Source: Siphonodentalium dalli
Taxonomy: Eukaryota; Mollusca; Scaphopoda; Gadilida; Siphonodentaliidae
DNA: 64,000 bases
Reading direction: 5' to 3'
Assembly: GCA_032622095.1 (NCBI GenBank)
Contig: CP136062.1
Coordinates: 138,402,351 to 138,466,350 of the forward strand
Of this stretch, positions 11,615 through 57,980 are shown piece after piece. Every line of letters begins with the position of its first letter. The first letter of the stretch is position 1. The notes beneath the pieces were generated by a model. The model was not told where the DNA came from. It saw only the letters and a list, made by a program, of their open reading frames with translations, and made no database searches. The position numbers and the translations under genes are program-made.

Positions 11615-11620
11615 TTTATT
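11615..11620 (-). promoter_or_regulatory. Candidate poly(A) signal AATAAA of the nucleoplasmin-like gene
   Basis: The plus strand reads TTTATT here, which is AATAAA on the minus strand, about 257 nt beyond the stop codon at 11877. It is the first canonical hexamer I find downstream of the stop. Confidence 0.5.
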
Positions 11621-11876: not shown

Positions 11877-11906
11877 TCATTTCTTCTTTCCTCCTTTCTT
11901 TGCAGC
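11877..11906 (-). CDS. Nucleoplasmin-like gene, terminal coding exon (30 nt)
   Basis: The acceptor is TATTCTCTTCCAG, then AAKKGGKKK and a TGA stop at 11877-11879. It enters in phase 0, matching the exon at 14292-14339. The 3' untranslated region follows to the candidate poly(A) signal near 11615. Confidence 0.82.
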   Translation of the reverse strand, partial: AAKKGGKKK

Positions 11907-14900
11907 CTGGAAGAGAATAGGTAAAAATTTACTTGCAGAATAGAGAAAGATCTCATCTGCGCTATCTTGGCTAATACTCCACCTCCAGATGTTTTAGTTA
12001 ACGGCCTGCCTTTTAGCTGATCAGTTTAGCATCCCAGAAGGGTCACAAATGACTGATAATAAATTTTCACCTTATGCAGACAACCTTGAGTTACTCAGCC
12101 TCACTAACTTGCATATTCATAAAATGACATGCAGCGATATTGTTTGTATATTCCAGATTTTTTACCAAAACATTGAGCACAACTTAGATTATTTTTAGTT
12201 TGTATTTTTCCAAAATACGTAATAACCAGAAGTTATAACAGATACTATACTCGACTCCGATAAATCATGCCCAGCTCTAATAGAATCAGGTCAAGGATTT
12301 CACATCAAATCGAATCACTAATTAATTGATAATGAAGGCTGAGCATGTTTCATCCAGCATATTTTTACAAATTTACGTACATTAGAATTCTAGTACCGGT
12401 CGAATTTCCCTGATCGGGATAGGAATTAGGTAAACATGCCTCGAAATTGGCCACAGCAATAAGCAATGCCACAGCATTTAATTTGCTGTGGGACACTTTT
12501 CATAATTATCTAGTGCTGGCTATACAACAGCCGGCTTTCACAATTTGACAGTACCCCATTTCATTTTATTGACTTGTTCCGAAATGTAATTTTTGGTGCA
12601 AATTGTATGATTACATTACTTAGAATATTATATTTTTGTCTCAGAACTTCTTAAAAGAATTTTCAGCGAAAAAATATATGGTTATAAGTAATGTAATCGT
12701 ACTGTTTCATACAGTTTGTGGAAATGGATCGATAGACCTGCGACGGCCTGCACCATTGATTGTGACCACCAGATCGTATTCACATCAAATACATATACAA
12801 ATATAATACAAAGCAGTGTCTATTTAAATTTTCACAACTTTGATGGAATGAATGGTGCACGTTATTAAAGTATTTCAAGCAACAAATTTAACTAGAGGTG
12901 TGACTGTCCCAATGGGACTACGGATACCCCCCTGTTTTTAAAATACTAAGATGTTTCACATGTCAGTAAATATTTAGTTAAAATAATAAAATAACAGTTC
13001 CCATTGCAGGTGTACAACCATAACCCTAATCTTAAACCTATTGACTGAAAATATGTAGGAATAAAAGCTTGGACAAAATTATGTATGTTGCGAAAAAAAA
13101 TCGAAGTCGAAAAAGGGGAATAACTCCGACAAAAAAATGTCGGACAGACGTCATAATCGCAGGTGCACAAGTTCCCATGGAACTAAATATCTGTGCCACG
13201 TTTTTAAAAAATTGACAGAAAAATGTAGGAAAAAAAGCTCTGACAAAAGTATACATGTTGCGAAAAATTTCTAAGTCGAAAAAAGGGGGATAACTCCACG
13301 AAAAAAAGTCCGACAGACGTCATAATCCCAGGTGCACAGGTTCCCATGGTGGTTGATGTCTGTGCCAAGTTTCACGACAATTGATTAAAAAACGACTGAG
13401 AAAAACTCCGGACAAATTTGTGTCCACGGACGGACGACAGACGACGGACAAGCCGACTCCAGTATACCCCCCCCTAACTTCGTTGCGGGGGGTATAATTA
13501 CTGATCACTGAAAGTGGTAGGATATAAGACATTTGCAACTTGCAGCCTTAAACTTCACTGGCACAAAGGTGATCAAATCTAATAATTAAATTGTTTTCAA
13601 TCGAACATTAAAGTTCGGAAACGTATATGACTAAAAGTTCATAACATTGAATCAACCAACTGACAGAGCGAGACTCCGTCACTACAAGTCTGTATCTCAT
13701 CTATGCATTCAAACTGAGGACAGTATAATGTATTAAGTAACGAGCGACCATTTCATTTTATTTTAGATTCCAACTTTTCCGAGTGGACTGAAACTCAAAA
13801 GTTTGCCACATGTTCGGATATTGGCTGTTGTCTTTACTAGAAAATACATGTGCATTGGCTTAATTCTGCTCAATTTTCATGAAATGGAATTAGGAAATAA
13901 ATGGTGAACCAATATTCAAAATATAAAAAACTAATCTCCTGGCCGACTTCTTTATGAAAAGTTTAAAATGTAAATTTTTATTACTCAACCATTCTAAAGA
14001 AACCCACGTAAGATATTATTTTCAAGCGTTAATTAACCAATTTTGAACCTCAGAAGCAACTCCAGCAATACTGGGTTTTATTTGAGGCTTCAAGGTTGGA
14101 TATTGCTTTGAGAATGATATCATTAGTCTCATGTCCCGAGACACGAAAGTAATCTCAAAAACTATGTCTCAGGTAACAGTAATTAACAGTTGCAGTATTC
14201 ATTAAAATCAATCATAAAGCAAGATTAGTTCATGGTATAAGCTAATGACTATTTGAACAAAGACTAATGTGAATATGTTTTAGGTACTCACTTTCGTCTT
14301 CACAACTTTGTCTTTTTTCACTTCCACTTTCCTTTGAGCCTGGAAAATGAGTAAACATAAAAGGTCAGCTGACCACAGTGTCCCCCGAAATTTTTTTTTT
14401 TTTCCGTCATCTATATACATGTTGCACATCTCCAATAAATGGGTAACAATACTGTTAAGTTTCAAATATCTACGATCAAAACTGGAGGAGTTGATTACAC
14501 CATGAAGGTACCCTCATACAGAAAATTCAAAAAAATGTTGAAATTTTCCAAGTCGAAAAGGGTTAATAACTGTCAAAAAGTAATTTTTCCGTCATCTATA
14601 TACATGTTGCACATCTTCAATATATGGGCAACAATATTCTTAAGTATCAAATCTCTGGGATGAAATCTGTAGGAGGAGATGATTACACCATGAAGGTACT
14701 CAAAAGTGACAGACGGATGGACGGACAGAGCCCGTGCCTCTTTAAAGTCATTTGAGATCAACAGCACCCATCATGTGACATTCTCGTCGAGTCATTTTAC
14801 ATTTTTGCAACAATTTTCACACATGGCATCTAGAATAATCAAGCTCTTTATTGATCAAATTTTCCCCTTTAAGTCTGAGGTCAACGGAATTCTACAGACC

Positions 14901-20900: not shown

Positions 20901-23900
20901 AAGCAATTGAATACTTCATTGTAAAACCATTACTGGTGTTAATAGGCAGTGGCGACTAGTGTAAGTACCAAGCAAGTTTGAGTTTCTGGTATTAAAACAT
21001 AGTTTTGTTTGCGTAAATTATATTCCAGCTTAATTTCACTATTTATAAATTTAATTCCAGGAATCAACGATAGACAAGCATAAAACCTAACTGGTCACTC
21101 GACAAAACAAATCAGTACACTCGCTCATTAGGAATTTGAAAGTAAACAAATCAACACTTCTATAAGGACGTATAAAATGTTCTGCCCTACACTTCTACTC
21201 CGGTCTGTACTATTATTGAAATTTATACCATTTGTCTGCCCTGTACTACTATTTCAGTCCGTTTTTCTATTCGGGACACAAGAATATTGGACCAGAGATT
21301 CTCTGGATGTCTTGGAAAATTGTGAGATTTTACGTCATAAAAGCCTAACCTCTCACATCCAAAACTGTACATATGTAACTGCCTATGAATAAATTAATTT
21401 ATTTTCAGAGGATTAAATTTTCTAAAATTAGCATTGCTGCATCTGAACTAAAACAAGCAGCATATTAATATGAGCAGTTGATTGAGAGTTGTATGAATCA
21501 GCAAAACCATACATGCATCAGACACAACCAGTGGCATAATCATGGATGGGTGAAATAACTCAACATTTATCTATGATTAACTAAAACCACAACTCTGGGT
21601 CTAAAATGAGTCATGGGGAACGTCATCAATAAGGTGGAACTAGTACTGTCATATACATCTTGACTGACTTGTATGGAACATCCTAGCACAATACAAAGTT
21701 TCTGAAACTATAATCGCAAATGAAAGCGCTTGTGTGACTGACCACTGCAACATCGTGCATGCGAACAAGAAATTCATATTTATCTGACAACAAAACAGTT
21801 GTTTACCCTTCTCGGGGAGGCATTGAGATTTGTCACCCGCTCGAGAACTAAATGTCTCCCTCTGAGCTCGCAGCTCTGACAAGGGAGACATTCTGTTGGA
21901 GTGAGTGAAAAATCTCAATGTCTACTTCGAGAACTGTATAATGTCCCACTTTATCCACAATCACATGTTTACATAGTCTTCTAAAAGAAAGGTTAGTAGA
22001 CCAGAGATTCTATAGATGTCTTTTATGCCATAAAAGCCTCCCTCTCGCATCCAAAATTGTACATATATAACTGCATGTGAATAAATGAATTTATTTTCAG
22101 AGAATTAAATTTTCTAAAATTAGCATTGCTGCATCGGAACTAAAACAAGCAGCACATTAATATGAGCAGTTGATTGAGAGTTGTATGACTCCGCAAAACC
22201 ATACATGCATCAGACACAACCAGTGGCATAATCATGGATGGGTGAAATAACTCAATTTATCTATGATTAACTAAAACCACAACTCAGGATCTAAATGAGT
22301 CATGGGGAACGTCATCAATAAGGTGATACTGAGACTGTCATATTAATGTGTTATGTTTGACATGCTTGGGAGTATGAAACTCATTTGTGAAACAGACAAT
22401 TTCTCAATAGCTTTCGGGGAAGATACAGTAATGCCCTAATTAATCGACTCCATAACCACAGCAGAATTATGGGTAATTTTTCAGGATTTAGTCGGAATAT
22501 GGCTTGTTCCGACTAAATCCTGAAAAATTACCCATAATTCTGCTGTGGTTATGGAGTCGATTAATTAGGGCATTACTGTACCTCTACTGAAATTAACATC
22601 CCGCATCAATTTCCCAGACATGACGACATGCTGTCCATTAAGATGACAAACTGCCGAAGCGGATTACATACTTCTCTTATTGGTTTACATTCCAAGGACC
22701 AATTTCCACGATGAACCACCAAAGTTTTTTAAATCCTAAAATCTTGACCAAATTATACCGAAAAGGAATCCTGGGCTGGGATGATACCAACTTACTGAAA
22801 CTCTTCGTGAGAGAATTGAAGGCACTCAAGCCTCGACTATGCAACATCGACAGGTAGGTCAACATGAAAATGACAAAGAATGCATCTTCTTTAGTTATCC
22901 GAAAAAACAGTGTCACCCTTGCTTGAAGGGCCTCCGATGACATTCTGGTCTCCCCAAGTTTAAATAGGCTTAGTGGATGAGAAATTATATTTATTTGAAT
23001 ATGGCGAGATATGCCAGAAACATATCTACAATTCCATTAATTCTTGAAAAAAATCAAAATGCTTCCCTCTCGCATCCAAAATTGTACATACTAGTATATG
23101 TCTATGAATAAATGAATTTATTTTCCGTGGATTATATTTTATGAATTTAGCATTTATGTATCTGAACTAAAACGAAACAGCACATTAATATGAAGAGTTG
23201 ACCGAGAATTGTATGACTCCGCAAAACCATACATGCATCTGACACAACCAGTGGCATAATCATGGATGGGTGAAATAACTCAACATTGATCTATGATGAA
23301 CTAAAACCACAACTCAGGATCTAAATGAGTCATGGGGAACGTCATCAATGAGGAACTAAAAGCCATATATTGATAATATATGCCATACACATATTGAATG
23401 TTATGTATTTTACTTAATATCACTAACCTTTGGCTTGGCACCTTTTTTTTTTCTGAAAATAAAAGATTGGAAATAAGTATGGAAAGATTAAATTAAGATG
23501 GAACTTTTATAATGAACAATTCTGTTGTAATAGTTATGGTGCCTTGTGTTGTGAGTAGATCTTTGTGTTACTCTCGAGTTAACATGGCCTTGTATTTTAC
23601 ACCTTCATATCAAGTGCAAGAAGGGTTGCACATCGTTTTCGAACCAATATTTTTGAACCGAATACGATTCTAATAAGAAACAGAATCAAAAAACGAATCT
23701 AACATCGAATATTCGCAGGACCCAAGGTCATAACTCTACGAAAAATATTGTGGTTGACCTGATATATTGTTGAAATCGGTTAATTTTGCATCGAGTTATC
23801 GCGACAACGGTGATAGAATTGCTAAAAATAGACAAAGACCCATAACTCCGGAAAAAAAAATCGGACAAACCTGGTTTTCGAACTCGTCCGAGATATTGTT

Positions 23901-26900
23901 GCAAGAGTCTCATATACCAAATATTGTTGAAATTGGTTAATATTTGCGTGAGTTATCGCGCTAACGGTGAAAAACTTAACTAAAAAACATCTAAGATGGA
24001 TAACTCTTGTAAAAAAGTTCGGATTGACCCATTTTCTACAGGCAGTAAATAGTCATTGGGAGCAACTGACATACCAAATTTTTTTTGAATCCGTTCACAA
24101 TTGTCAAAGTTATAAGGCATTCTTTAGGTCCGCCCGCCCGCCCGCCAACCGTCCATCGTCAAACCCATAAGTCGAGTTTTTGAAAAACTCAACTAAAAAC
24201 TAATTCCAAAATACGAAATTTTACATATAATGAATGAATACATGAATTTATTTTCCGTGCATTTACATTTCTAAATTGAGCATTGTGGTACCTGAACCAA
24301 AACAAAACAAGCACAATAACAACAAGTGCACCGCTAGGCGGAGGTAACGCCCCCGACTGTACAATCAGAGAAACTTTCTGGTTAAGCGCTATAAAAATGC
24401 CACATGTTGTTCTATATTAGCTTCAAATTTGGTCTGGTGCCACAAAAATAGAAGGAAAACTGAATTTTCTAAAAATAAAAATGAATTTTTTAAGTCGAAA
24501 AATGGTCATAACTCTCACAACAATTATCCGATTGAACCAAAATTTTACCTTGACCTGTATTGCGATATTGGTAATACACGAAAAAACGGGTTTTGCAAAT
24601 AAACAATCCAAAATCAAGTTATCATCTGGAAACAAAAAAAAGTAGCAGAAAACTGAATTTTCTAAGTCCAAAAAGGGGCGTAACTCTGGAAAAATTGGGC
24701 GGACGAAACCACGGCTATGGGGAAATCTTGTCCCCCGGCTGGTCTATTGGCATACCAAAGATCAACTGAATTGAATTAGCGAAACCAAAGTTATGAGTTG
24801 AAACGTTCGTATGCCACAGAAAACTGAATTTTCTAAGTCCAAAAAGGGGCGTAACTCTGGAAAAAATGGGCGGACGAAACCGCAGTTATAGGGAAATCTT
24901 GTCCCCCCGGCTGGTCTATTAGCATACCAAAGATCAACTGAATTGAGTTAGCGAAACCAAAGTTATGAGTTGAAACGTTCGTACGGACGGAAGGACGGAA
25001 GGACGGAAGGACGGAAGGAAGGACGGACGGAAGGACGGACGGACGGAGGGCTCCACTATATACCCCCAAATCTCCATCGGAGATCGGGGGCATAATAATA
25101 GCAGTTGACTGAGAATTGTATGAATCCGCAAAACCATACATGCATCTGACACACCAGTGGCATAATCATGGATGGGTGAAATAACTCCACATTGATTTAT
25201 GATGAACTAAAACCACAACTCACGATCTAAATGAGTCATGGGAAACGTCATCAATAAGGTGGAACTAGTATTGTCATAGTCTTGACTGACTTATAATGGA
25301 ACATCCTAGCAAAATACGAAGTTTCTGAAACCATAATAGAGAATGAAAGCACTCGTGTGACGACTGTGCAACAATGACAAAAAACGACAAAGAATTCATA
25401 TTTAGTTATCTGAAAAAAGTTGTTTCCCTTCTTGGGAGACATTAAGATTTGTCACCTGCTCGAGAATGAAATGTCTCCATCGGAGCTCCCCTCGCCGTGA
25501 GCTCCGAAGGAGACATTGTTTGAGCGCGACAAATCTTAAATGTCTCCTTCGACAACAACTGTATAATGTCCCATTTTATCCACAATCACAAGTTTAGATA
25601 GGCTTCTAAAAGAAAGGTTACTCTCGTGTCCAGAATCTAACATCGAATATTCGCAGGACCCAACGTCATAACTCTACCAAAAATATTGTGGTTGACCTGA
25701 TTCTGTGTGAAGCGGTTACACATGGCTATAGTCTAACATACCAACACCTAAGTTATAGAGGATAATGGGCTGGCCGAATGATCTGACTTCAGCTGACCTG
25801 CCAACTGTCCCTTGTCCAATCACAAGTCGAGTTTTGAAATAAAACTAGTAAAACACAATACCCATTACCAGCAGCAACAAATACATAATAATATTTTTTA
25901 TATTCATCACTGCCCAATGACTGAGCAGCGGCAAAATATACTAATATTGCGAAAACCCAAAACCTGGGGGGGGGGGGGGGGGGGCGGGGGTCTTGAAATG
26001 CTGTTTCCTTTCTGAAGTAGAAACCATGGACCAAATTTTATCCAATTCAGATAACTATTATTTGTTTGAGTTATCTCACTTAAAAATTGGCATGTGAAGA
26101 ACAAATCAATAACTCCTGAAATACGATTCAAGCAGGACTGGTTTTCGATCAGAGTAAAATCAGATCAGAAACATTTATTGGATTTATCTTGGTTAAGTTA
26201 CGGCACGGACAGATGCCCAGTCATTCATCCAAACATGGTCGATTTGTCACACAACTCACTAAATGAAAGTGTCAATGACACTGTAGCTCAACATTGTAAA
26301 GAGATGGGCGGTTGTGAAAGTTTGCCTCGATTTCGGTTGTGGAAAAAGAGCCGAGTCTCGGTTTCGGTTTTTATTAATAAAAATTACTAATGTGAACAAA
26401 ATCTAATTATGCTTCATCATATTACAAAGAAAACACACCAATTGTATCACCATAACTTGTGAGGTACATGTCCTTTTATAATATTAAATTATGTATCATA
26501 TTGTTACTATTACATGTACTAGTATATTGTTAATGTCCATGTCGAGTGGCAGTGCTAGAATGCAAGTGAGTCTGTGTATTGTGTATGACTGCAATTCAGC
26601 ATCATATGATCATAAGTGTGAAATAATATAATGATCATTTATATTGGCATAAAACTAATGTGTGTGACTAGATATATGTGTATAGTTATGATTTGAAAAA
26701 TAAAATTGGAAATACAACAAAATGAAAATAAAACATGACTAGAATCTCTCAATCACATTATCTGGCTATATGCCTATTACCATATTTAGGGAACATAATA
26801 TTGTACACACTATACAGTATACATGCATCCAATACAAGTCACCCGAATGATTGCTATTTCTCAACAGTTTACCGACAAACGGTATAATTCATTCCGGCTC

Positions 26901-47900: not shown

Positions 47901-50900
47901 TTTTTCTCAAAATATCAATAAAAAGATTAGGGTCGGCGGGTTATTTTTAGGGTCGGTCGATGTACGGAAACATATTATCTTTTTTATTTGGCCTAATCAA
48001 AACAATGATGATAATCACTATAAAGGTGGACTTTCTTAGTCACATGATAATACTTTACTGCTATGTAGTTTCACAGTACGACAATGTAGTGCTATTTTTA
48101 TGTTGATATACAATGCCAGACCTATTTCAGTTTTAGCATTTCCCCTTGTGCACATTTCAAACATCACTCTTGTCCAACTTTCAATTTCAGTTATTTTTGT
48201 GTGAGTGAGTTTCTTTTGTTTTAGTATCAGGTTTCTAGATGATGCTGTATTTGTTTTTTAATTTGTCCAAAGTTTCTGAAAAAAGGCCCAAAAAAAATCA
48301 AATTGCAGGAAATGGCCACAAGAATTTTCTCGCCCAGCATTATTCGTGATCCATACTTTATAATCTGAATCAAAAGCTGAATAGTTTTCATAAATATTAG
48401 CTTACATCATGAAAACATCTTTCAAATGCAATGCTACAGATAATTGGTGGGCTGCAATTGTTCCAGATCAACGGCAGATAAATAACAATTCTCTATTATC
48501 TGCTTCCATATTTGCATCCTACAAGTTAAAGGGGAAGAAAACACTCAACAAATCAGGCCGTTAATATATTTACTATGTCAACCATGGTGTGATAAAACAC
48601 CTCTTATTTCTCAGTTATGCTAAAACGCAATGATATCACATCGTGTTATACAAACTCGTGCTAATTACAGCGCGTCCATATTTATAAGATCATGATGTCA
48701 TAGCATCACTTCGCATTACTCATCCTTAGTACAGATATGTATAAAGGCTATCGCACTAAAATCATTTCAGCATTTTTGTTATTCTGTGCAAAATCCAAGC
48801 AATCACAGCCTATTGAAGACTACATACATGTATTATGAGGCAAAATGATTTACGCTATAATTTTGAATATTTAATTTACGGCCAGTTAAGCGAAAGGTGT
48901 CAAGTTCATAGGTATTTCATGAGTTGCCGTTTTTTAAAACAGATTTTTATCTGTCCGCACTTGCAAACCATTGGTACTATACTTGCTTCAATTTCTTTTT
49001 CATAACATAAAGATATAAATTATCTCCTTCTGAGGATACCATTGAAATGTGCATTTTGAAGTAGTCTTGATTCCACACATGACAACTCACGAAAAACCTA
49101 CGAACTTGAACATTTCGCGCCAGTTAAATTAATGGTGGCATAACATTTGAATGTGACAAGCTTGGCCAAACTGACACAACTTCTATATGTGCAAATATGA
49201 CAACCAAACAATCTTTCGCGAATTAAACATAATATATTCACCACAGGTATTCATGTATTGTGCACAACAAACATTCAATCTGCCGTTTTATTTATTTTCA
49301 TATCTAAAAACAGGCTATCGTATGCGATGCAGTTTAGCGTTAAACAGCCGAACTATAAAGAGAGATAATATTTCTTCCAAAATGGAGGTTGAGTTACTAG
49401 CGTAATTTATTGTGCGGGCTAGTTTGAGATGCCATCTCCGGTCTTCTGTGGAGAATTACGCTGAAATTTTACACATAAACAAAGAACAGCTTGCATATTA
49501 AGCACATGCCTTTCCGTTATGCGATAGTTTCCTTCCCCTTTAAAATTATCTATGACAAATAACTTTGACCTGAAGTAGAACTGAAGCTTCTTACCTTTCC
49601 TTTACCCTCTTTTTGGGATGATGCTTTTCTCTTCTTGGTTATTTTTAGATCTTTCTTTGGAGAGTCCTCTTCATCTTCTACGGCTTCATCCAATTCTTCA
49701 TCAGTGAAACCCGTCTCATCCTGGCTCACGTTAGGGTCTTCTGGGTACTCTATATGAACGTCAAATTGTTGATAGACATTACAAGTCAACGAAACATGGG
49801 TAGAACATTGCGCAGGCAATAACCAAGCCTGGAAATAATTTTGGTGCCGGATAAAATAACGGGCACCAGTTGTTTTGTGCCAGTCAGCAATAATTTTGTG
49901 CCTTTCAAATAAATATCACAAGGTATATACAGTAATGCCTTAAATAATCGACTCTTTAACCACAGCAGAATTATGGGTAATTTTTCAGGTTTTAGTCGGA
50001 TATGGCTTGTTGCCATTCATTGGAAAGCTCTCGAATGGCAACAAGCCATATTTCCGACTAAATCCTGAAAAATTACCCATAATTCTACAGTGGTTAAGGA
50101 GTCGTATGAAGTTTGGGAGCAATCAGATGAAAACTGTTGGTTGTAGAATTGTCAAAGGATTTAGAGTGAAATACAAGATAGCTCCAGTCTGCCATATTTA
50201 ATTGAAATTATTCAAATTTAATAGCCCTCATATAAAGTCCACCCCGAAGATCGGTATGAAGTTAGGAATCATTCAGATAGAAAATGTTGGTTACAAAGGT
50301 GTGCTGAAGGTTTTAGTCAGCAAAGATTAAAATCCAAGATGACAGCCATATTTTTTATGGAAAATCGTTCCAATGTGATAGCTCCCATCTTGAATGATAA
50401 ATATGACAAAGTAGAGCCTGGGATATTTCCAAACGGCAGGTCTGAATTAACAATTGTAGCTCAAGATCATGCAGTTAAGACAAAATATTTCCAGCAACGA
50501 TTTATAATTAAGAATACAGACCAAGTAGGTCATCACAATTAGAGTTTAATTCGGGACCGGGAATTCCCGGTTCCCGATTTCCAATTGACAAGTCCCGAAA
50601 TCCGGATTTTCAAAACCGGGAACCGGGAAATGTAAAAAGTCCACTGTGATGCGATTTGAGTCGGAACATAATGTATTTAATAGTGTGTATTTGTACGTTT
50701 TAAGCACAATCATGTATATCGTTTGATCGTTAGATTCGTTACCATCATATCTAGTGTTAACTGCAGTCTGCACGTAATTATAACGTTTTTGGGGCACCCT
50801 GGAATGGCCGGCATTGATGGTGTTACTAATATTATTATATAAACAGACACAGTGAAATTGACAAGTTGACATATAACTTGACAACACTGTCTCACTCGCC

Positions 50901-53900: not shown

Positions 53901-56900
53901 CAGGGAAAATTTTAAAACATGGTATTTTCCCCCCGGTCTCCCATATTCGATGTATAATGCCAATAAGTCACATTCAGAAAACGGCTCGGACTAGCCTGAA
54001 TACTACTTAACCCTCGACCACAAGAGACCGGAATACCAGTCCTTATATTCCTATAACCCAGAGACCAGAATACCGGTCCGGAAATCATACAATTTTTGAC
54101 ATGGAAATATAGCAGAGTAAACGCACATATCAACTAGAATTACACTTCTACATTGCACACATGAGTCACGTGTTTACCCATGTGACTTTGGCAGGCAAAC
54201 TGGTGACAGAGGGTCTGCTTATTCGCACGACAATTTATTGCTCGAAAATATTGATTTAATAACTAGGTCAAAGGCCTCTCAGCGGACAGGGAGAATGACG
54301 AGCCGATTTGTTCGGTAGATTCTGATATTATATCTCGACTTCTCTTCGTTCGATTTCGCCGAGTTATATGTCAAATGAAAGGGAATTTTATTGCCAATAA
54401 GGCACCAGGGGGATATTTTGGCTGCATTTATCGATTTCTAGTATTTGTAGGGTTTTGATGGTTGATGTGGTTTTAGCCACAATCGATCATTGGAAACTTT
54501 ACACTGGTATAGTCTATATTGGTAATTTAGAAATTTTCCCCAGGGGCCTGTGGTCCGGAGGGAGGGGGGGGGGGGGGGGGGGGTATTCATATTATTTTGA
54601 GCGAAGTTGAAAATAAAATGATAAAATGAAAAGCCAGCCGCCAGCCCCAATTTTGTTCTTGCAATGTCACCAGAAACACAGGTAAATATTTGTTTGGCCA
54701 AATGGAGGTGTTAACTATTCCAAAACCATATAAAACACTACTAATATAATTCTATTGTAATAGTTTCCTAAATTGAATGGTACCGATTGACCGATATTTT
54801 TTTCTTTATTGAGGAATTGAAAAGTGACTTGCCAAAACTTTTGCCAAATGAAGTGGCAGCGCGAACCCCGATTAACTCTCTACATTCAAAATCACAGCGG
54901 TTCCAATGTTGACGATTTGAAGCATATCTTCTTTGATGTATTGCAATCCAACAAGACCAAGTACCAACTGACCATTACACTAATTATCAATAAGGCATTA
55001 AATCTTCCCAACTACTTCATTTTTAATAAATGACAATATAAGCATTAACACTTACCAACCAACTGCTGAGCTGAGAGGTAAACTGGTCCAGATCCTTCTG
55101 TGAGTTTGAATTTGACTGGATTATTGTGTGTGAAGCTCAGATCTGAATAACACTGAAAAGGAAAACATTTAGTTCTCACTATAAAATATCAATCAGAATT
55201 GGATTAGCATGTTATGTTTTTGCATCTATAGATTCCACACACAAATGTTGCAGGCTTGCAGATAATACAAAATTTAAATCCCAATTTATCATGCATTAGT
55301 TTTCTTCCAGTTATAATGGCATGGTCAGTAGGTTGTTTACATAGATAGTAATCAATTTGTGTCGACGATTGAATGATATTCAGAAGGAAAGTCAGGCCTG
55401 GCAAAACACTGAGTTAGTGGAGTGAACGAAAACAATTCTGTTTATTACACTTTCTACCATTAAAATATTTGTTAATTTTATAAACACTATCCGACAAATT
55501 AGGCACAACTTTAGGTTGCATGGATGATTATTGGTGACAATGATTCCGCTTGACCATTTTCGGTCAATATGGATACAGAAGATACTATAATTATGACCAA
55601 ATAAAGTATCTTTTCGACTTGTCCATGTTTGTGCTGTCAAGTCATTTTAATATTCGCAGGGCCAAGACAATTCAAACAGACATGAGGCGGGGTTAAGAGC
55701 TGTACAAATGTGCGTGCTGTCACTGGGACCTAATTCAGTCATGACATGCTCACTTTATCAATCGAGAAATCCTTATGAATTGCCAATAGGTTGTGTAATA
55801 AAGTTCATTCTCAATGATACAGTTACTTCCTCCCCGATTGCCACATGAGGACAGTGATCCTGCAATTTTATACCAAAAACAATTTGAAATAAAAAGTAGA
55901 ATGCCATCAGATGAGGGGTTGAGTTGTGGTAATAGTAGCTATACCAGACATGGGCTTGGATTGAGAATTCCTTAAGTGTAACTGGCGATCATACATAGCA
56001 CTGTTGAGGAAGTCATAGTGATCAAAATTCACGAAAATGATCTAATTAAGGGCTGTACCAAGCTTGATTATAAGTACTCAGTCACCATCCTTGTCCAATC
56101 CAAAACATATCAAAATGGCAGACACAATCTAGTCTGTCATTTAGACAGACATAAATCAGAAAATTAGAATCAGACTTGGCCATCAGGTAATGCCATAAAT
56201 AGTCTATTCCTTAACCACAGCAGAATTATGGGTAATTTTTCAGGATTTAGTAGGAAATATGGCTTGTTGCCATTCATCAGATATCTTTCGAAGATCTTTC
56301 CGATGAATGGAACAAGCCATATTTCAGACTAAATGCTGAAAAATTACCCATAATTCTGATGTGGTTAAGAAGTCGACAACTTAGAGCATTACTGTATTCT
56401 GCAACTTTATTGCTATATTTTCTGAAAAGTGAGCTAGGTGTATTCCTTCAATATTATTTGGTAGCTTTTCCGTTGATCATTTAGGCCATTACTGTAACTC
56501 TGCCCAAAGTAGACATACCTGGCTGGTTTTCGAACTCTCTCAAGACATTGTTGAGCAATAAATTCAGTTGAAATTTTTTCTAAGTTATCTCGCCATCTCC
56601 ATTTGTAAAAGTTTTTGAAAAAAATCAACAAATTGATGATATAGAAAGGAGGAGAACAAAGAAATCTAACAAGTTATAAATACAACTTCTACAAGCTCCT
56701 CTCTCTCTCTTCCATGTATTATGCTAAGCTCTTTATGAGATTGTTTTGAATAGATTAGATCGCTTTATAAATTTATATTAATCTCTTACAGGAATTCATT
56801 TTGTGTGCCAAGTCCACGTAATGGATTAATCAATGTAGATTAAAATGTTTTAGTGTCAAATGTACCCCAAGGGTTTTCTAATGAAAACTACTATTTTTGT

Positions 56901-57980
56901 TTGCAGTGCTTGTCAAAACTGTGCTGTGTATCAATTGATGTAAAACAAACAGTCAATGATGTACAATGTACTTGTAATCTATAGAACGAATTCTCAATTG
57001 TTCACTAAAGTTATGAAACAAACCTAGTGATATCTAATCAGGCACCAGTTGTTATTGCCTGGATAAAGCATGCACCGAACAAACGACTGCAAAATGGGTC
57101 AGTACATTATAAATATCTAGCATTATGAGTAAATTTCTATACCGACATCTCCGCCTGATCGATATATGCTCTGGTCAGCCATTGAGTCAATGCTTATGTC
57201 AAAATATGATCGTTTCATCCACCAGAGTTATTTTCACAACAATAAGATTATCAAAGTTTGGTGGGTGAAGTTGAAAAAATAATATAACATTGTAAAACCA
57301 TCATCATAAATAACGCTAAAACATAAAGACCTATTTTCATCATCAAAAGTGATGGGACTGTGTGGAAATCAATTAAAATCATTGTAAACAAAAGATGTAA
57401 CCGCAAAAAGGGGGGGGGGGGAGACAAATATATTATGTCACTAAACCAATCATTATTATTGGTTTCAAATGAATACAAACAAAATGTGAGAAAAAGATTA
57501 GAGTGAAAATGTAAAAACTGGGTGACGAGATCGTCTAAGGTGATGAATTTCATGACATCAGGTTAACGAGAACAAGTGCCCAGAGAGTTAAAAGGATTAC
57601 AAAGTAACAAGTGTAACAACTAACATTCTCAGTGAGGCCCATGGTGAGTGAGAAGAGAGGCTGACTCAACGGCTCTTTTTCAAAATTTGTCGTCTCGATG
57701 CTAATTATATTCCTTTCTCCACTCACAGCCGATGCACCAAGTACAGCCTGAAATTATAAATTCACTAATTTTTCAGGTATTTGAAATAATAGCTACAAGG
57801 TACATAATGCATCAGTTAAGGAGAGCACAACATAAGACAATTTGGCAGAGCAAACACAGAATTTAACTTCCAAGCAGGAAATCCACATGGAATTTTGAAA
57901 GAGTTAACAAATAACAGTTAAAGATACCAAATTCAGATGTACACCTGGACATACACAGCTAATTTGTATACATCAGTGAA
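11877..57980 (-). CDS. Nucleoplasmin/nucleophosmin-family histone chaperone, nine exons, 5'-partial
   Basis: Nine exons joined by GT-AG introns of compatible phase: 57945-57980, 57625-57747, 55056-55152, 49595-49740, 32022-32099, 30579-30643, 23428-23452, 14292-14339, 11877-11906. They encode ~215 residues plus stop. The first part is a nucleoplasmin core: AVLGASAV and NIISIETTNFEKEP match the family's LGA.A and V.IE..N.E strands, and KLTEGSGPVYLSAQQLVG matches the hallmark L..GSGPV.ISGQHLV. Then come a K/R-rich NLS-like stretch, two Asp/Glu tracts and a Lys-rich tail ending GGKKK. Family knowledge: pentameric nuclear/nucleolar chaperones that bind histones H2A-H2B through acidic tracts; sea-urchin mitotic apparatus protein p62 is a relative with similar tails. 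The initiator exon is not visible and probably lies past 64000. Introns total ~45 kb and are mostly transposons. Family assignment is firm; the exact orthologue is not. Confidence 0.85.
11907..12890. other. Intron sequence, nothing else seen
   Basis: This is unique AT-rich intron DNA of the nucleoplasmin-like gene. It has no repeat family that I recognise and no ORF of note. Confidence 0.4.
12891..13498 (+). mobile_element. Family-2 array element, copy 1
   Basis: The left end ACTAGAGGTGTGACTGTCCC holds the hairpin GTCCCAATGGGAC and then GGATACCCCC. The core is three diverged units with 'aaaatgtaggaataaaagct', 'aataactcc', 'gtcggacagacgtcataatcgcaggtgcac' and 'ttcccatgg'. The tail is an ACGG-rich microsatellite, then the right hairpin ACCCCCCCCTAACTTCG ... 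GGGGGGTATAAT. The inner inverted repeat is ATACCCCC/GGGGGTAT. It shows the same architecture as family 1 with unrelated ends. The left flank ends in A and the right flank starts with T. Confidence 0.72.
14292..14339 (-). CDS. Nucleoplasmin-like gene, Lys-rich exon (48 nt)
   Basis: The acceptor is CATTTTCCAG and the donor AAA|GTGAGT; phase 0 at both ends. It encodes AQRKVEVKKDKVVKTK, part of the basic tail. Confidence 0.8.
14390..14740. repeat. Two-unit tandem repeat (~185 bp) with GGAC-type tail
   Basis: 'tttttccgtcatctatatacatgttgcacatct' recurs about 185 bp apart (near 14400 and 14585), as does 'gattacaccatgaaggtac'. The array ends in GACAGACGGATGGACGGACAG. It is probably another array-element family; I could not define its ends. 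Confidence 0.6.
15331..18481 (+). mobile_element. Family-1 array element, copy C (3.15 kb, about 18 monomers)
   Basis: The left end ATGAAAGTGTCAATGACACT is at 15331. The right end is a (GGACACAC)n microsatellite, CCATGGCAATAGCTC, then the hairpin ending AGTTGAGCTAA at 18481. Two monomer types alternate: one starting 'ggatttagtcatgcaaagag' with 'ggctgctggcgg', the other 'ggattgaatcttgaaatcc' with 'ggctgccagcgg'. The segments beginning at 16963, 17446 and 17929 are spaced exactly 483 bp, a three-monomer higher-order repeat. Monomers of ~161 bp shift frame each time, so the short ORFs here are chance. The element lies in the intron between exons at 23428 and 14339. Confidence 0.78.
18929..19141. 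mobile_element. Fold-back MITE with nested palindromes (213 bp)
   Basis: GCCCTGTGCCAATGCATTCT opens the element and its complement AGAATGCATTGGCACAGGGC closes it. The block with AGAATGCATTGG also occurs internally in both orientations around 'cgcctcgcatata', so each half is itself a palindrome. Confidence 0.78.
19453..20042 (+). mobile_element. Family-2 array element, copy 2
   Basis: It has the same ends as the 12891 copy (ACTAGAGGTGTGACTGTCCC ... GGGGGGTATAAT). It sits between 'aaaacaagaagcaca' and 'aatagcagtt', the junction that is empty in the related direct repeats at about 21470, 22150 and 23180. Confidence 0.75.
22424..22580. mobile_element. Fold-back MITE (TA-flanked), copy 1
   Basis: A near-perfect 157-bp palindrome opens TACAGTAATGCCCTAATTAA and closes with the complement. 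The inner arm words are CACAGCAGAATTATGGG and CAGGATTTAGTCGG. The TA at each end fits a TA target duplication of Tc1/mariner type. Other copies are at 30798, 49930 and 56184. Confidence 0.85.
23428..23452 (-). CDS. Nucleoplasmin-like gene, Lys-rich microexon (25 nt)
   Basis: The acceptor is TTTTATTTTCAG and the donor AAG|GTTAGT. One base completes the split Thr codon, and eight codons give KKKGAKPK, ending in phase 0. The 25-nt length fits the phase-2 entry exactly, which supports this tiny exon. It begins with a run of ten A. Confidence 0.72.
23660..24190 (+). repeat. Family-5 array module with 3' hairpin
   Basis: Three ~110-130-bp units contain 'cataactc', 'tcggacaaacctgg', 'ttcgaactc' and 'taccaaatattgttgaaat'. 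They are followed by a (CCGC)n microsatellite and the hairpin GAGTTTTTGAAAAACTC. A shorter relative lies at 25640-25850 ('atcgaatattcgcaggaccc' near 23705 and 25650). The left end is unclear. Confidence 0.55.
24316..25095 (+). mobile_element. Family-3 array element
   Basis: Near the left end are the hairpin CCGCTAGGCGG and GCCCCCGA (24349-24356). The cores carry 'aaaaaggggcgtaactctgg', 'gggcggacgaaacc', 'cttgtcccc' and 'cataccaaagatcaactg'. A (GGAC/GGAA) microsatellite spans about 24990-25050. The right end is the hairpin AAATCTCCATCGGAGATC..., with TCGGGGGC (25084-25091) complementary to the left GCCCCCGA. It occupies the same junction in its direct repeat as family-2 copy 2 does in another. 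Confidence 0.7.
26299..27408 (-). mobile_element. hAT element relic with TAGAGATGGGCGG ends (1.1 kb)
   Basis: Left AAGAGATGGGCGG and right CCGCCCATCTCTA are inverted repeats (one mismatch at the tip). The related copy at 29366-30382 has the same ends. The 8-bp duplication is not clean here. The right part, read on the minus strand, encodes a BED-finger N-terminus (27179-27289), showing that the element derives from a transposase-bearing hAT. Confidence 0.78.
27179..27289 (-). pseudogene. BED zinc-finger start of a hAT transposase (36 codons, truncated)
   Basis: ATG at 27289 opens MAEHDEQTSPVWKYF, then a Lys-rich stretch and CAACNIC, ending in TGA at 27179. W12, F15, C24 and C27 match the first half of a BED finger (W..F..........C..C), and SPVW-YF is shared with the hAT transposase at 51259. 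The His ligands and all catalytic domains are missing. It is a remnant in a non-autonomous element; expression is unlikely. Confidence 0.65.
29366..30382. mobile_element. hAT element relic with perfect 8-bp TSD (1017 bp)
   Basis: The ends are TAGAGATGGGCGGTT (left) and AACCGCCCATCACTA (right). ACACACAG flanks both sides (29358-29365 and 30383-30390), a perfect 8-bp duplication made inside the CACACA microsatellite of copy D. No transposase frame is left. Confidence 0.88.
30579..30643 (-). CDS. Nucleoplasmin-like gene, second acidic-tract exon (65 nt)
   Basis: The acceptor is TTTATGCAG and the donor AC|GTGAGT; phase 0 in, phase 2 out. It encodes DEEDDEEEDSDDDESEESPV then Lys and part of Thr. 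Ser residues set in acidic runs are casein-kinase-2-type contexts (inference). Confidence 0.85.
30798..31008. mobile_element. Fold-back MITE, copy 2
   Basis: It starts CTAATGCCCTAAATAATAGA and ends with the complement ...TTATTTAGGGCATTACTG. The arms share AATTATGG / GGATTTAG with the other copies, and the loop carries a second palindrome ('gaaagctctcagtgagagcttt'). Confidence 0.8.
31009..32021. other. Intron sequence, nothing else seen
   Basis: This is AT-rich intron DNA between two acidic-tract exons. I see no recognised repeat. Confidence 0.35.
32022..32099 (-). CDS. Nucleoplasmin-like gene, acidic-tract exon (78 nt)
   Basis: It encodes QRGKFQEAEEEDEEDEDEEE followed by DEDMEE in phase 0. 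The acceptor region is CTCAGCAG, a NAGNAG tandem acceptor, so Gln1 may be included or skipped. The donor GAG|GTCTGT is weak. The acidic tract is the histone-binding type (A2-like) of the nucleoplasmin family. Confidence 0.85.
32330..32940 (+). repeat. Family-4 array module with 3' hairpin
   Basis: About three ~170-bp units contain 'ggggcataactctg', 'aaaattgtcgga', 'gaacccaagtttgaacttg' and 'agttatcatccgg'. The tail has no long microsatellite, but the end is a hairpin, ATACGACCGTTT...AAACGGGCGTAT (32909-32936). The left end is not defined. Confidence 0.6.
33471..33502. repeat. Small hairpin
   Basis: AATAAAAAGG and CCCTTTTTATT pair around 'cctaatgcgg'. It is a short palindrome just upstream of the outer nested element. 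Confidence 0.45.
34186..35284. mobile_element. hAT-like element with 6-bp TSD (1099 bp)
   Basis: The ends are CAGGGATGAGAA (left) and TTCTCATCCCTG (right). The flanks ACAGTA (34180-34185 and 35285-35290) are a perfect 6-bp duplication. A minus-strand frame at 34600-34791 has FRWECMVGKDRFACASCHK, reminiscent of a Cys-containing transposase N-terminus, but it is short and its neighbours are in other frames. The 43794-44866 element shares the CAGGGATG tip and also has a 6-bp duplication. Confidence 0.8.
35285..35568. repeat. TACTAG-rich simple sequence
   Basis: The palindromic word ACTAGT / TACTAG and variants (TACTAGTACTGG, ACTACTAGTAGTA, AGTACTAGTACTAGTA) recur at intervals through the ~280 bp between two hAT insertions. 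It is a degenerate microsatellite. Confidence 0.6.
35569..43079. mobile_element. hAT-like element, perfect 8-bp TSD, filled by a family-1 array
   Basis: The left TAGGGTTGCCACGATTAT and right ATAATCGTGGCAAGCCTA are inverted repeats. ATAACAAT flanks both sides (35561-35568 and 43080-43087), a perfect 8-bp duplication. Subterminal GTTAGTCGATTAATCG words occur at both ends. About 1.1 kb of its own sequence remains; the other ~6.4 kb is the family-1 array. An ATG near 36485 starts a short frame (MSAATSKAEDAATEL) that may be a transposase N-terminal relic; confidence in that is low. Confidence 0.85.
36650..43016 (+). mobile_element. Family-1 array element, copy F: head-to-tail partial dimer (6.4 kb)
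   Basis: The left end ATGAAAGTGTCAATGACACT occurs at 36650 and again at 40382, but only one right-end hairpin exists (43016). The two left blocks and the monomers after them are nearly identical with an offset of 3732 bp (36713 versus 40445; 37013 versus 40745), about 23 monomers. The upstream unit breaks off mid-monomer at 40381 and runs straight into the second left end. Higher-order duplication is also visible inside: ~319 bp (37622 versus 37941) and ~1.78 kb (37602 versus 39381). Confidence 0.8.
43677..45093. repeat. ~170-bp tandem duplication, first copy interrupted
   Basis: 'atttcgatcactctttttgg' through 'gtgaaatgatacattgcacc' occurs as 43677-43793 plus 44873-44925, and again intact at 44926-45093. 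The first copy is split by the element at 43794-44866; the second copy is its empty site. Confidence 0.8.
43794..44866. mobile_element. hAT-like element with 6-bp TSD and an empty-site paralogue (1073 bp)
   Basis: The ends are CAGGGATGTGC and GCACATCCCTG. ATGCGC is duplicated (43788-43793 and 44867-44872). The neighbouring tandem copy reads 'cgcgcatgcgcataggat' with no insertion, so the ends and duplication are confirmed within the window. No transposase frame is seen. Confidence 0.85.
45139..45920. repeat. Two diverged ~390-bp tandem units
   Basis: Paired words recur about 390 bp apart: 'gtgtcattcgatca', 'gcttagcaaccattg', 'tttcacaatagggt', 'agctataattg', 'accgttaccagggagtga' and 'catttgaacataa'. 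They lie inside the piggyBac-like element. Confidence 0.7.
46401..47994. mobile_element. DNA transposon relic with ~30-bp TIRs (1.6 kb)
   Basis: Left AGGCCAAATAAAAAAGATAA and right TTATCTTTTTTATTTGGCCT (with TATGTTTCCG continuing inside) are complementary over about 30 bp. Next to each end is a 'ttagggtaggta' / 'ttagggtcggcggg' block. The target duplication is not clear. A fold-back MITE (47112-47439) is nested in it. Confidence 0.7.
47112..47439. mobile_element. Fold-back MITE type 2, copy 1 (TA-flanked)
   Basis: The ends are AAGGGGTACTGTACC and CAGTACCCCTT, each bordered by TA. The long imperfect arms share 'ggaccatctccttktatact', 'gaatatatgcaacaaatgaatg' and 'accatgttgtttgcat' in opposite orientation. 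Related to the element at 58069-58412. Confidence 0.82.
47995..49594. other. Intron sequence, nothing else seen
   Basis: This is unique AT-rich intron DNA of the nucleoplasmin-like gene, upstream of its basic-linker exon. Short ORFs (for example at 49187-49405) have no recognisable domain. Confidence 0.35.
49595..49740 (-). CDS. Nucleoplasmin-like gene, linker and NLS exon (146 nt)
   Basis: Donor AAG|GTAAGA. The acceptor CCCAG at 49741-49745 gives the boundary used here; an alternative ATATAG nine bases upstream (exon start 49749) keeps the frame and adds three residues. It enters in phase 1 and leaves in phase 0. The protein starts EDPNVSQDETGFTDEELDEA, continues acidic to DEEDSPKK, then becomes basic (KITKKRKASS, KEGKGK), a plausible bipartite nuclear localisation signal. 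DEEDSPKK also looks like a Ser-Pro phosphorylation context (inference). Confidence 0.85.
49930..50105. mobile_element. Fold-back MITE, copy 3 (one end missing)
   Basis: CAGTAATGCC starts after TA at 49930. The arms share CACAGCAGAATTATGGG and CAGG(A/T)TTTAGTCGG. The right arm stops at 'aaggagtcg' without the closing GGGCATTACTG, so the right tip is deleted. Confidence 0.78.
51259..52536 (+). CDS. hAT transposase, N-terminal and catalytic part (425 codons)
   Basis: This cut-and-paste transposase binds the element ends, excises it and inserts it with 8-bp duplications. A BED zinc finger spans residues ~9-49 (W11, F14, C24, C27, H44, H49). The RNase-H-like catalytic core follows: D161 in LTLDEWTS, D225 in CTSDGAAVM, the C244..H247 pair, and TRWNS at 365-369. 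An unusually acidic insertion (about 268-318, Asp/Glu-rich) lies between the second Asp block and TRWNS. After residue ~406 the frame leaves homology and stops at 425, while the expected continuation is found one frame over from 52478. The start ATG at 51259 immediately precedes the finger. It is a frameshifted gene, so activity needs either a correction of the read or recoding. Confidence 0.9.
   Translation: MACRQNASPVWEYFIRQANNKAECKQCSKILTLSGGSTGGLSKHIKLVHRIEMKRPADVKTEPGSSKIPRQRTVDQFLRKEKVSLEQTLAKLAAVDGLSIYAIVNSEYIRSCMERDELKLPKNPSDVMSLLGKHVAQIRSDMGVEFVRRIENGERFSLTLDEWTSIRNRRYLNIDIHGKDGVFWNTGLRRITGKFTSEATLEAVREHLAEFKIDIDKHCAICTSDGAAVMVKFGRLMPTTAVLCYSHGIHLGVSDVMYKCTQSTQLTQDDNDEETDESGEATEIQNQNVEHEENEDSDQSDDEFGDADIEIQEETPELEVSYAEIVKKVRNDCKKFRRGRADEILQQYVVTEFRTELKPLIDVKTRWNSIETMFTRYLKLRPCMLKAFVDLKSKSCITEEELVVVTCERYRGDVKANYDCERGTL
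52478..53242 (+). CDS. hAT transposase, C-terminal part in the +1 frame
   Basis: The frame is open from a GTG codon at 52478, directly after a TGA at 52472-52474, to the stop at 53240-53242. Its first residues (VRDIAATLRPITIANEALCR) continue the transposase. Near the end it has TSVESERSFSTAGKF with the catalytic Glu (residue ~213), then RSRLSDSSLSNLLFLRKF, the hAT C-terminal dimerisation region. Together with the upstream frame the protein would be ~660 residues, normal for hAT. One inserted base (or two lost) around 52474-52480 explains the break; a sequencing error cannot be excluded. Confidence 0.88.
   Translation: MRDIAATLRPITIANEALCRRETTFISAEGILKFLFTQLNKVNCDFSSQMFEKLQERIGKRRDKTLVTLLLYLHDNEAFSRAVKPVTVASPAPALVDSSFFELSTKAARVKLAKTELMRLRTLDALSDENTQDLESSTDVPTPVTVPTLEAELQGFIDASTSHKSRTGGNVQRTTPNIAAEFKLYEANNVRTENLNFLYEALKTGKPTSVESERSFSTAGKFSTKIRSRLSDSSLSNLLFLRKFYRKTATIRKS
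53634..55055. other. Intron sequence with an 18-bp minisatellite and a G-run
   Basis: Three copies of an 18-bp unit (ACCATCCCATTTAACTGA) lie at about 53740-53791. A run of about 20 G sits near 54564-54583. There is no gene and no recognised mobile element. Confidence 0.5.
55056..55152 (-). CDS. Nucleoplasmin-like gene, core-domain exon (97 nt)
   Basis: The acceptor is CCTTTTCAG and the donor G|GTAAGT; phase 0 in, phase 1 out. It encodes CYSDLSFTHNNPVKFKL followed by TEGSGPVYLSAQQLV. GSGPVY.S.Q.LV is the most diagnostic motif of the nucleoplasmin family (GSGPVHISGQHLV in vertebrate NPM), so this exon anchors the assignment. Confidence 0.93.
55153..56183. other. Intron sequence, nothing else seen
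   Basis: This is unique AT-rich intron DNA between two core-domain exons. Short ORFs on the minus strand lack splice context or domains. Confidence 0.35.
56184..56394. mobile_element. Fold-back MITE, copy 4
   Basis: It starts CAGGTAATGCCATAAATAGT and ends with ...TTAGAGCATTACTG before TA. The arms share CACAGCAGAATTATGGG and CAGGATTTAG with copies 1-3. The loop contains 'gatatctttcgaagatcttt'. Confidence 0.8.
56395..57624. other. Intron sequence, nothing else seen
   Basis: This is unique AT-rich intron DNA. It includes a short piece of the 'ataactc...acctggttttcgaactc' core module near 56490-56540 and a run of about 12 G near 57410-57421. Confidence 0.4.
57625..57747 (-). CDS. Nucleoplasmin-like gene, core-domain exon (123 nt)
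   Basis: The acceptor is TTTATAATTTCAG and the donor AAT|GTTAGT; phase 0 at both ends (41 codons). It starts AVLGASAVSGERNIISIE and continues with TTNFEKEPLSQPLFSLTMGL. This matches the second to fourth beta strands of the nucleoplasmin core (LGA.A...E...V.IE..N.E...). Confidence 0.88.
57945..57980 (-). CDS. Nucleoplasmin-like gene, exon (36 nt), first seen
   Basis: A microexon after a strong pyrimidine tract and acceptor (TTTTCCACTCTATACAG), with donor CAG|GTGTAC. It encodes FTDVYKLAVYVQ, which aligns with the early core strand (H.L...Q) that directly precedes the ALLG/AVLG segment in family members. It ends in phase 0, as the next exon requires. An earlier exon with the start codon must exist, because no Met is available here. 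Confidence 0.7.

What the first reader, a model, noticed from the sequence alone, without database searches (positions are those of the whole stretch)
11877..57980. Hidden 46-kb nucleoplasmin-family gene made of microexons
Nine exons of 25-146 nt on the minus strand join with matching phases at every junction to give a nucleoplasmin core (GSGPVYLSAQQLV), an NLS-like linker, two acidic tracts and a Lys-rich tail ending in a stop. None of it stands out as a long ORF. The intron-to-coding ratio is about 70 to 1.
Basis: partly seen in the sequence, partly recalled or inferred. Interest (0 to 1): 0.85.

Follow-up and report, generated by a model that had tools for sequence, protein, structure and literature searches.

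The report
Nucleoplasmin gene hosting U6-guide snoRNAs
The split gene is real: it is an ordinary nucleoplasmin (histone-chaperone) gene of an unnamed animal, spread over 60 kb, and its introns also carry five copies of a small RNA predicted to direct chemical modification of the U6 splicing RNA.

Summary
The gene is real. Two core exons hit Pfam Nucleoplasmin singly and jointly (E 5.8e-14); the rest join in phase to a stop. The 5'-most exon (57980-57945) is wrong: inserting it cuts the domain score from 85.9 to 72.3 bits. The true first two coding exons lie 8.0 and 4.6 kb beyond the window's right edge. With them the protein is 247 aa and covers 102/102 profile positions (84.1 bits). Ten exons over 60 kb are ordinary animal gene structure.

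Unreported: introns 7-8 hold five sense-strand SNORA79 H/ACA snoRNAs (71.1-85.0 bits, cut-off 55). Their two pockets fit U31 and U86 of this genome's own U6, the sites published for ACA65/SNORA79. Two more copies were found in the genome, one inside a ribonucleotide-reductase large-subunit gene. Both parts are known kinds; the pairing of host and guest I did not find in print (listings only). No RNA evidence was available.

The parts
57625..57747 (-). coding exon 3, nucleoplasmin core (AVLGASA...GLTEN), 123 nt
   Evidence: PF03066 18.0 bits alone, 52.9 with exon 4; phases
55056..55152 (-). coding exon 4, core with GSGPVYLSAQQLV, 97 nt
   Evidence: PF03066 29.9 bits alone, profile 77-102
49595..49740 (-). 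coding exon 5, acidic linker and KKRK (NLS-like) stretch, 146 nt
   Evidence: in-phase join, donor GTAAGA score 10.2 but weak acceptor 1.7
32022..32099 (-). coding exon 6, acidic tract, 78 nt
30579..30643 (-). coding exon 7, acidic tract ending ESPVK, 65 nt
23428..23452 (-). coding exon 8, 25-nt microexon (with the preceding codon: TKKKGAKPK)
   Evidence: only candidate with both splice scores >=7 in its interval
14292..14339 (-). coding exon 9, Lys-rich, 48 nt
   Evidence: acceptor 11.0, donor 8.4
11877..11906 (-). coding part of exon 10, AAKKGGKKK and stop, 30 nt; AATAAA at 11620
   Evidence: acceptor 12.6; poly(A) signal
25114..25253 (-). SNORA79 H/ACA snoRNA copy in intron 7
   Evidence: RF00600 79.6 bits
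23207..23347 (-). SNORA79 copy in intron 8, 80 nt after exon 8
   Evidence: RF00600 85.0 bits
22179..22317 (-). SNORA79 copy in intron 8
   Evidence: RF00600 71.1 bits
21487..21628 (-). SNORA79 copy in intron 8
   Evidence: RF00600 72.3 bits
20064..20203 (-). SNORA79 copy in intron 8
   Evidence: RF00600 80.7 bits

Best explanation
One minus-strand, single-copy nucleoplasmin gene of ten coding exons (744 nt, 247 aa) runs from C2:138474344 down past window position 11877. Exons 1 and 2 (MALAESREYFW and the first core strands) lie outside the window at extended coordinates 71994-71961 and 68612-68515 (L001:7994-7961 and 4612-4515). The protein has a full nucleoplasmin core, presumably a pentamer that binds histones, then acidic tracts, a KKRK signal and a basic tail. 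Introns 7 and 8 carry one and four copies of the H/ACA snoRNA SNORA79 in the sense direction. They are most likely released from the spliced-out introns and guide pseudouridylation of U6 snRNA at U31 (5' hairpin) and U86 (3' hairpin). Shown: domain, phases, family match, complementarity to the genome's own U6. Inferred: splicing, expression, processing, histone binding, modification.
For: Nearest solved relative Drosophila nucleoplasmin-like 1nlq, E 1e-10. snoRNAs: five RF00600 hits 71.1-85.0 bits; pairwise body identity 91-99% while 110-nt flanks are 13-94%; a diverged genomic copy (59-65% identical to the rest) keeps both pockets; U31 and U86 are the best U6 sites in 7 of 7 copies (scores 11-13 and 10.5-11.5); shuffled arms reach 13 in 1 of 5000 and 11.5 in 6 of 5000. 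ACA65 is listed as guide for U6 psi31 and psi86 in PMC7960923 (passages).
Against: No RNA data. Exon 1 was picked by eye from 55 loose candidates and was not in the stricter scan; its donor GTTAGC is middling. Acceptors of exons 3 and 5 are weak. The snoRNA folds are only modestly stable (z -1.06 to -1.77; minimum-energy fold is the two-hairpin form in 4 of 5). The 3' pocket has a U:U mismatch next to U86 in all copies. Pocket arms were chosen knowing the published sites. A bovine study predicts rRNA sites for SNORA79 (PMC12427106, passages); rRNA targets were not tested here. Four snoRNAs in one intron run against the usual one per intron (PMC11028025, passage). A whole-genome PF03066 search gave 0 hits because exons are short.
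Confidence: 0.85

Rival explanations
1. The gene is, starting with 57980-57945, and 46 kb long.
For: That segment is open, in phase, has a good acceptor (top 0.6%) and is the best phase-0 candidate in its intron.
Confidence: 0.03
2. The nucleoplasmin gene is real but the five SNORA79 copies are mostly dead duplicates; only one (or only the copy in the ribonucleotide-reductase gene) makes guide RNA.
For: Four lie in a single intron, against the predominant one-per-intron rule; copies arose by local duplication with shared flanks; other copies exist in the genome.
Against: Bodies are kept at 91-99% while flanks have drifted, and all pockets still fit U6. Recent duplication or gene conversion could also keep bodies alike, so this is not decisive.
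Confidence: 0.3
3. The joined exons are the remains of a nucleoplasmin pseudogene or a chance chain.
For: Some splice sites are weak; no expression data.
Against: No frame break over 248 codons, ten phase-consistent exons, full domain, and no other nucleoplasmin locus seen (3 of 7 matches are this gene; the loci of the other four, E 2.67-9.97, give at most 3.6 bits to a local profile).
Confidence: 0.03

Closest known systems
Nucleoplasmin/nucleophosmin family (PF03066); nearest solved member Drosophila nucleoplasmin-like protein, PDB 1nlq
   Same: Full core domain, GSGPV motif, acidic tracts, basic tail
   Different: No NPM1-type C-terminal domain was hit (one search lists only PF03066 and PF17800). 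Nothing in the protein sets it apart as a new kind.
SNORA79 (ACA65), Rfam RF00600, H/ACA guide of U6 psi31 and psi86
   Same: Full-length model matches above cut-off, pockets for U31 and U86
   Different: Five copies in a nucleoplasmin gene, four of them in one intron; in chicken, guides matched to ACA65 for U6-86 are listed in introns of HTR2C and EIF3S10 (PMC2653536, passages).

Membership tests
Nucleoplasmin (PF03066) | full core domain above the curated cut-off | tested here: met
   84.1 bits vs 25.8, 1-102/102
Nucleoplasmin (PF03066) | acidic tract(s) and nuclear localisation signal after the core | tested here: met
   sequence; acidic scan; nuclear import itself not tested
Nucleoplasmin (PF03066) | pentamer, histone chaperone activity | not testable with these tools
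   spliced protein was not folded; needs protein
NPM1 subtype | C-terminal nucleic-acid-binding domain | tested here: not met
   Pfam scan of the 247 aa gave only PF03066 and PF17800 at E <= 0.01
Sea-urchin p62 | sequence orthology to p62 | not tested
   no p62 sequence was available; mitochondrial-code evidence argues against an echinoderm
SNORA79 (RF00600) | covariance-model score above gathering cut-off | tested here: met
   5 of 5 at 71.1-85.0 vs 55 bits
SNORA79 (RF00600) | two hairpins | tested here: inconclusive
   family alignment fits both hairpins, but free folding gives them as minimum-energy form in 4 of 5 with z only -1.06 to -1.77
SNORA79 (RF00600) | guide pockets for U6 U31 and U86 | tested here: met
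   best U6 sites in 7 of 7 copies, own U6 sequence; U:U mismatch beside U86
SNORA79 (RF00600) | expression and modification of U6 | not testable with these tools
   no RNA data

The most novel reading that the evidence does not exclude
In this lineage the nucleoplasmin gene has become a dosage-amplified factory for U6 guide RNA: several of the five SNORA79 copies are made from one pre-mRNA, four of them from one 9-kb intron, so processing cannot follow simple one-per-intron trimming, and guide dosage rose alongside an amplified U6 gene array (at least 43 copies on C9).
Probability: 0.2. Interest if true: 0.55.

Novelty: new member of a known kind. Interest (0 to 1): 0.3.

Why it matters
It corrects a gene model that exon-by-exon searching misses (whole-genome Pfam search: 0 hits) and adds a nucleolar-chaperone gene to the hosts of guide snoRNAs. 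If several of the four copies in one intron are made, that intron is a natural test of how more than one H/ACA RNA can be cut from a single intron.

Tried and rejected
Rejected: exon 57980-57945 as 5' exon. Rejected: other nucleoplasmin copies. A first regular-expression search for the N-terminal exon failed; the profile search succeeded. No further Rfam families above cut-off in the window or in the 100 kb upstream; sub-threshold miRNA matches in the window were taken as chance. No other Rfam family near the two C5 copies or in the 20 kb downstream of the gene. The animal was not identified to species: a nuclear copy of COX1 reads with code 5. The host of the second C5 copy (C5:167002667) was not found: two nearby open stretches gave no Pfam hit. 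Structure prediction was not tried, since a spliced protein is not read letter for letter from the DNA.

Literature: listings only; passages of PMC12427106, PMC7960923, PMC2653536, PMC3349704 and PMC11028025.

Full report
Observation. The window is C2:138402351-138466350 of a 2.23-Gb genome held in 9 contigs. A nine-exon chain that fits (57980-57945, 57747-57625, 55152-55056, 49740-49595, 32099-32022, 30643-30579, 23452-23428, 14339-14292, 11906-11877) gives 215 aa, as it said. Eight of these stand.

Core. Exons 3 and 4 hit PF03066 separately, on adjoining stretches of the profile (32-70 with 18.0 bits, below the 25.8 cut-off; 77-102 with 29.9 bits) and together at 52.9 bits, E 5.8e-14.

The 5' end. 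The profile positions before 31 were missing. A small profile built from six recalled nucleoplasmins, run over minus-strand open segments of the window plus 100 kb upstream, put one segment outside the window third, with 15.2 bits, between the two known core exons (23.8 and 12.7 bits); the next segment had 7.5 bits. That exon, 68612-68515, has a CAG acceptor, a GTAAGT donor and ends in phase 0, as exon 3 needs. It starts in phase 1 with GCEL, so exon 1 must end ...[W/F/Y]G. A strict scan did not show a convincing exon 1; a loose one gave 55 candidates, among them MALAESREYFW at 71994-71961, chosen by its likeness to the family's N-terminus. It adds 6.4 bits (79.5 to 85.9). I put about 0.85 on exon 1 and 0.98 on exon 2. 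The full 247-aa protein scores 84.1 bits over 102/102 positions.

The tail. Exons 5-10 have no domain of their own, so the tests are phase, splice sites and composition. Phases agree throughout. The acidic exons are the only acid-rich 15-aa windows on both strands of 164 kb, and the 25-nt exon is the only candidate of its quality in the 16-kb interval where a change of phase is required. Splice scores are mixed: good for most sites, weak for the acceptors of exons 3 and 5 and the donor of exon 3.

Ordinary or not. Ten coding exons of 25-146 nt across 60 kb are ordinary for a large animal genome. No second nucleoplasmin locus was seen (3 of 7 tblastn matches are this gene; the loci of the other four, E 2.67-9.97, gave at most 3.6 bits to the local profile).

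Rfam finds five SNORA79 (RF00600) matches in the window, the only families above cut-off, each full length, 71.1-85.0 bits against a cut-off of 55, on the gene's strand: one in intron 7 (25253-25114) and four in intron 8 (23347-23207, 22317-22179, 21628-21487, 20203-20064). They arose by local duplication: pieces of the flanks are shared between some copies. Bodies are 91-99% identical pairwise; 110-nt flanks are 13-92% upstream and 30-94% downstream. Selection on the bodies is the simplest reading, but recent duplication or gene conversion is not excluded.

Elsewhere in the genome. Seven matches over cut-off were reported (41 of 398,760 first-look candidates scored, so a lower bound): these five and two on C5. 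C5:108320108-108320249 lies on the minus strand between segments matching ATP-cone (25.1 bits, just below cut-off) and ribonucleotide-reductase large-subunit domains (48.6 and 117.7 bits above cut-off; 17.1 and 20.3 below) on the same strand, 355 nt upstream of a segment that I recognise from recall as an RRM1 exon but which had no Pfam hit. So that copy too sits in an intron in sense. It is only 59-65% identical to the other six, yet keeps the pocket stretches; 77 of 147 columns are invariant over the seven.

Target. This genome's best U6 copies match the recalled human U6 over both regions. With arms read from the alignment, U31 is the best-scoring U6 uridine for the 5' pocket in 7 of 7 copies and U86 for the 3' pocket in 7 of 7. 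Shuffled arms reach the observed 13 in 1 of 5000 and 11.5 in 6 of 5000. In that output the column headed '31' was set one base off; the best-site column is the one used. The 3' pocket has a U:U mismatch beside the target. PMC7960923 lists ACA65 as guide for U6 psi31 and psi86 (passages). Against: a bovine study predicts rRNA sites for SNORA79 (PMC12427106, passages), and I did not scan rRNA. Free folding is only modestly better than shuffles (z -1.06 to -1.77; two-hairpin minimum in 4 of 5).

Mechanism. The gene makes a histone-chaperone mRNA; spliced-out introns 7 and 8 are the likely source of the guide RNAs. In animals the usual pattern is one snoRNA per intron (PMC11028025, passage), so four in intron 8 suggest that some are silent, that an unseen exon divides the intron, or that several are cut from one intron. 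No RNA data distinguish these.

Print. Searches for SNORA79, snoRNA host gene with nucleophosmin and nucleoplasmin with snoRNA host gene gave listings in which I saw no such host; I opened one of those papers (PMC12427106) for passages. PMC3349704 notes that snoRNA genes may sit in different hosts in different species (passage), so a new host is not in itself surprising.

Verdict. A correct but ordinary gene call with a wrong 5' end, plus an unreported cluster of guide snoRNAs that deserves a modest score.

Noticed in passing
G000 C9:133539523-133836326: At least 43 U6-like copies at roughly 1.36-kb spacing in two opposed blocks; the 3 copies inspected share an extra G in the internal stem-loop region and a change near the 3' end. 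48 U6 matches in all were scored.
   Followed up: partly
window 51259-53242 (+): Remnant or copy of a hAT transposon in intron 4: BED zinc finger and hAT dimerisation region in two overlapping frames.
   Followed up: partly
window 548-2176 (-): Reverse-transcriptase ORF (RVT_1 63.6 bits) downstream of the gene.
   Followed up: no
window 19363-19443 and 24234-24319: Copies of the snoRNA downstream flank without a detectable snoRNA body: traces of further duplication units.
   Followed up: partly
G000 C1:108127492-108128832 (L043): Intact nuclear copy of mitochondrial COX1 with five TGA codons; reads with the invertebrate mitochondrial code.
   Followed up: partly
L033:668-811 (+), C5:167002667-167002810: Another SNORA79 copy, 82-85% identical to the five window copies; host not identified.
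   Followed up: partly
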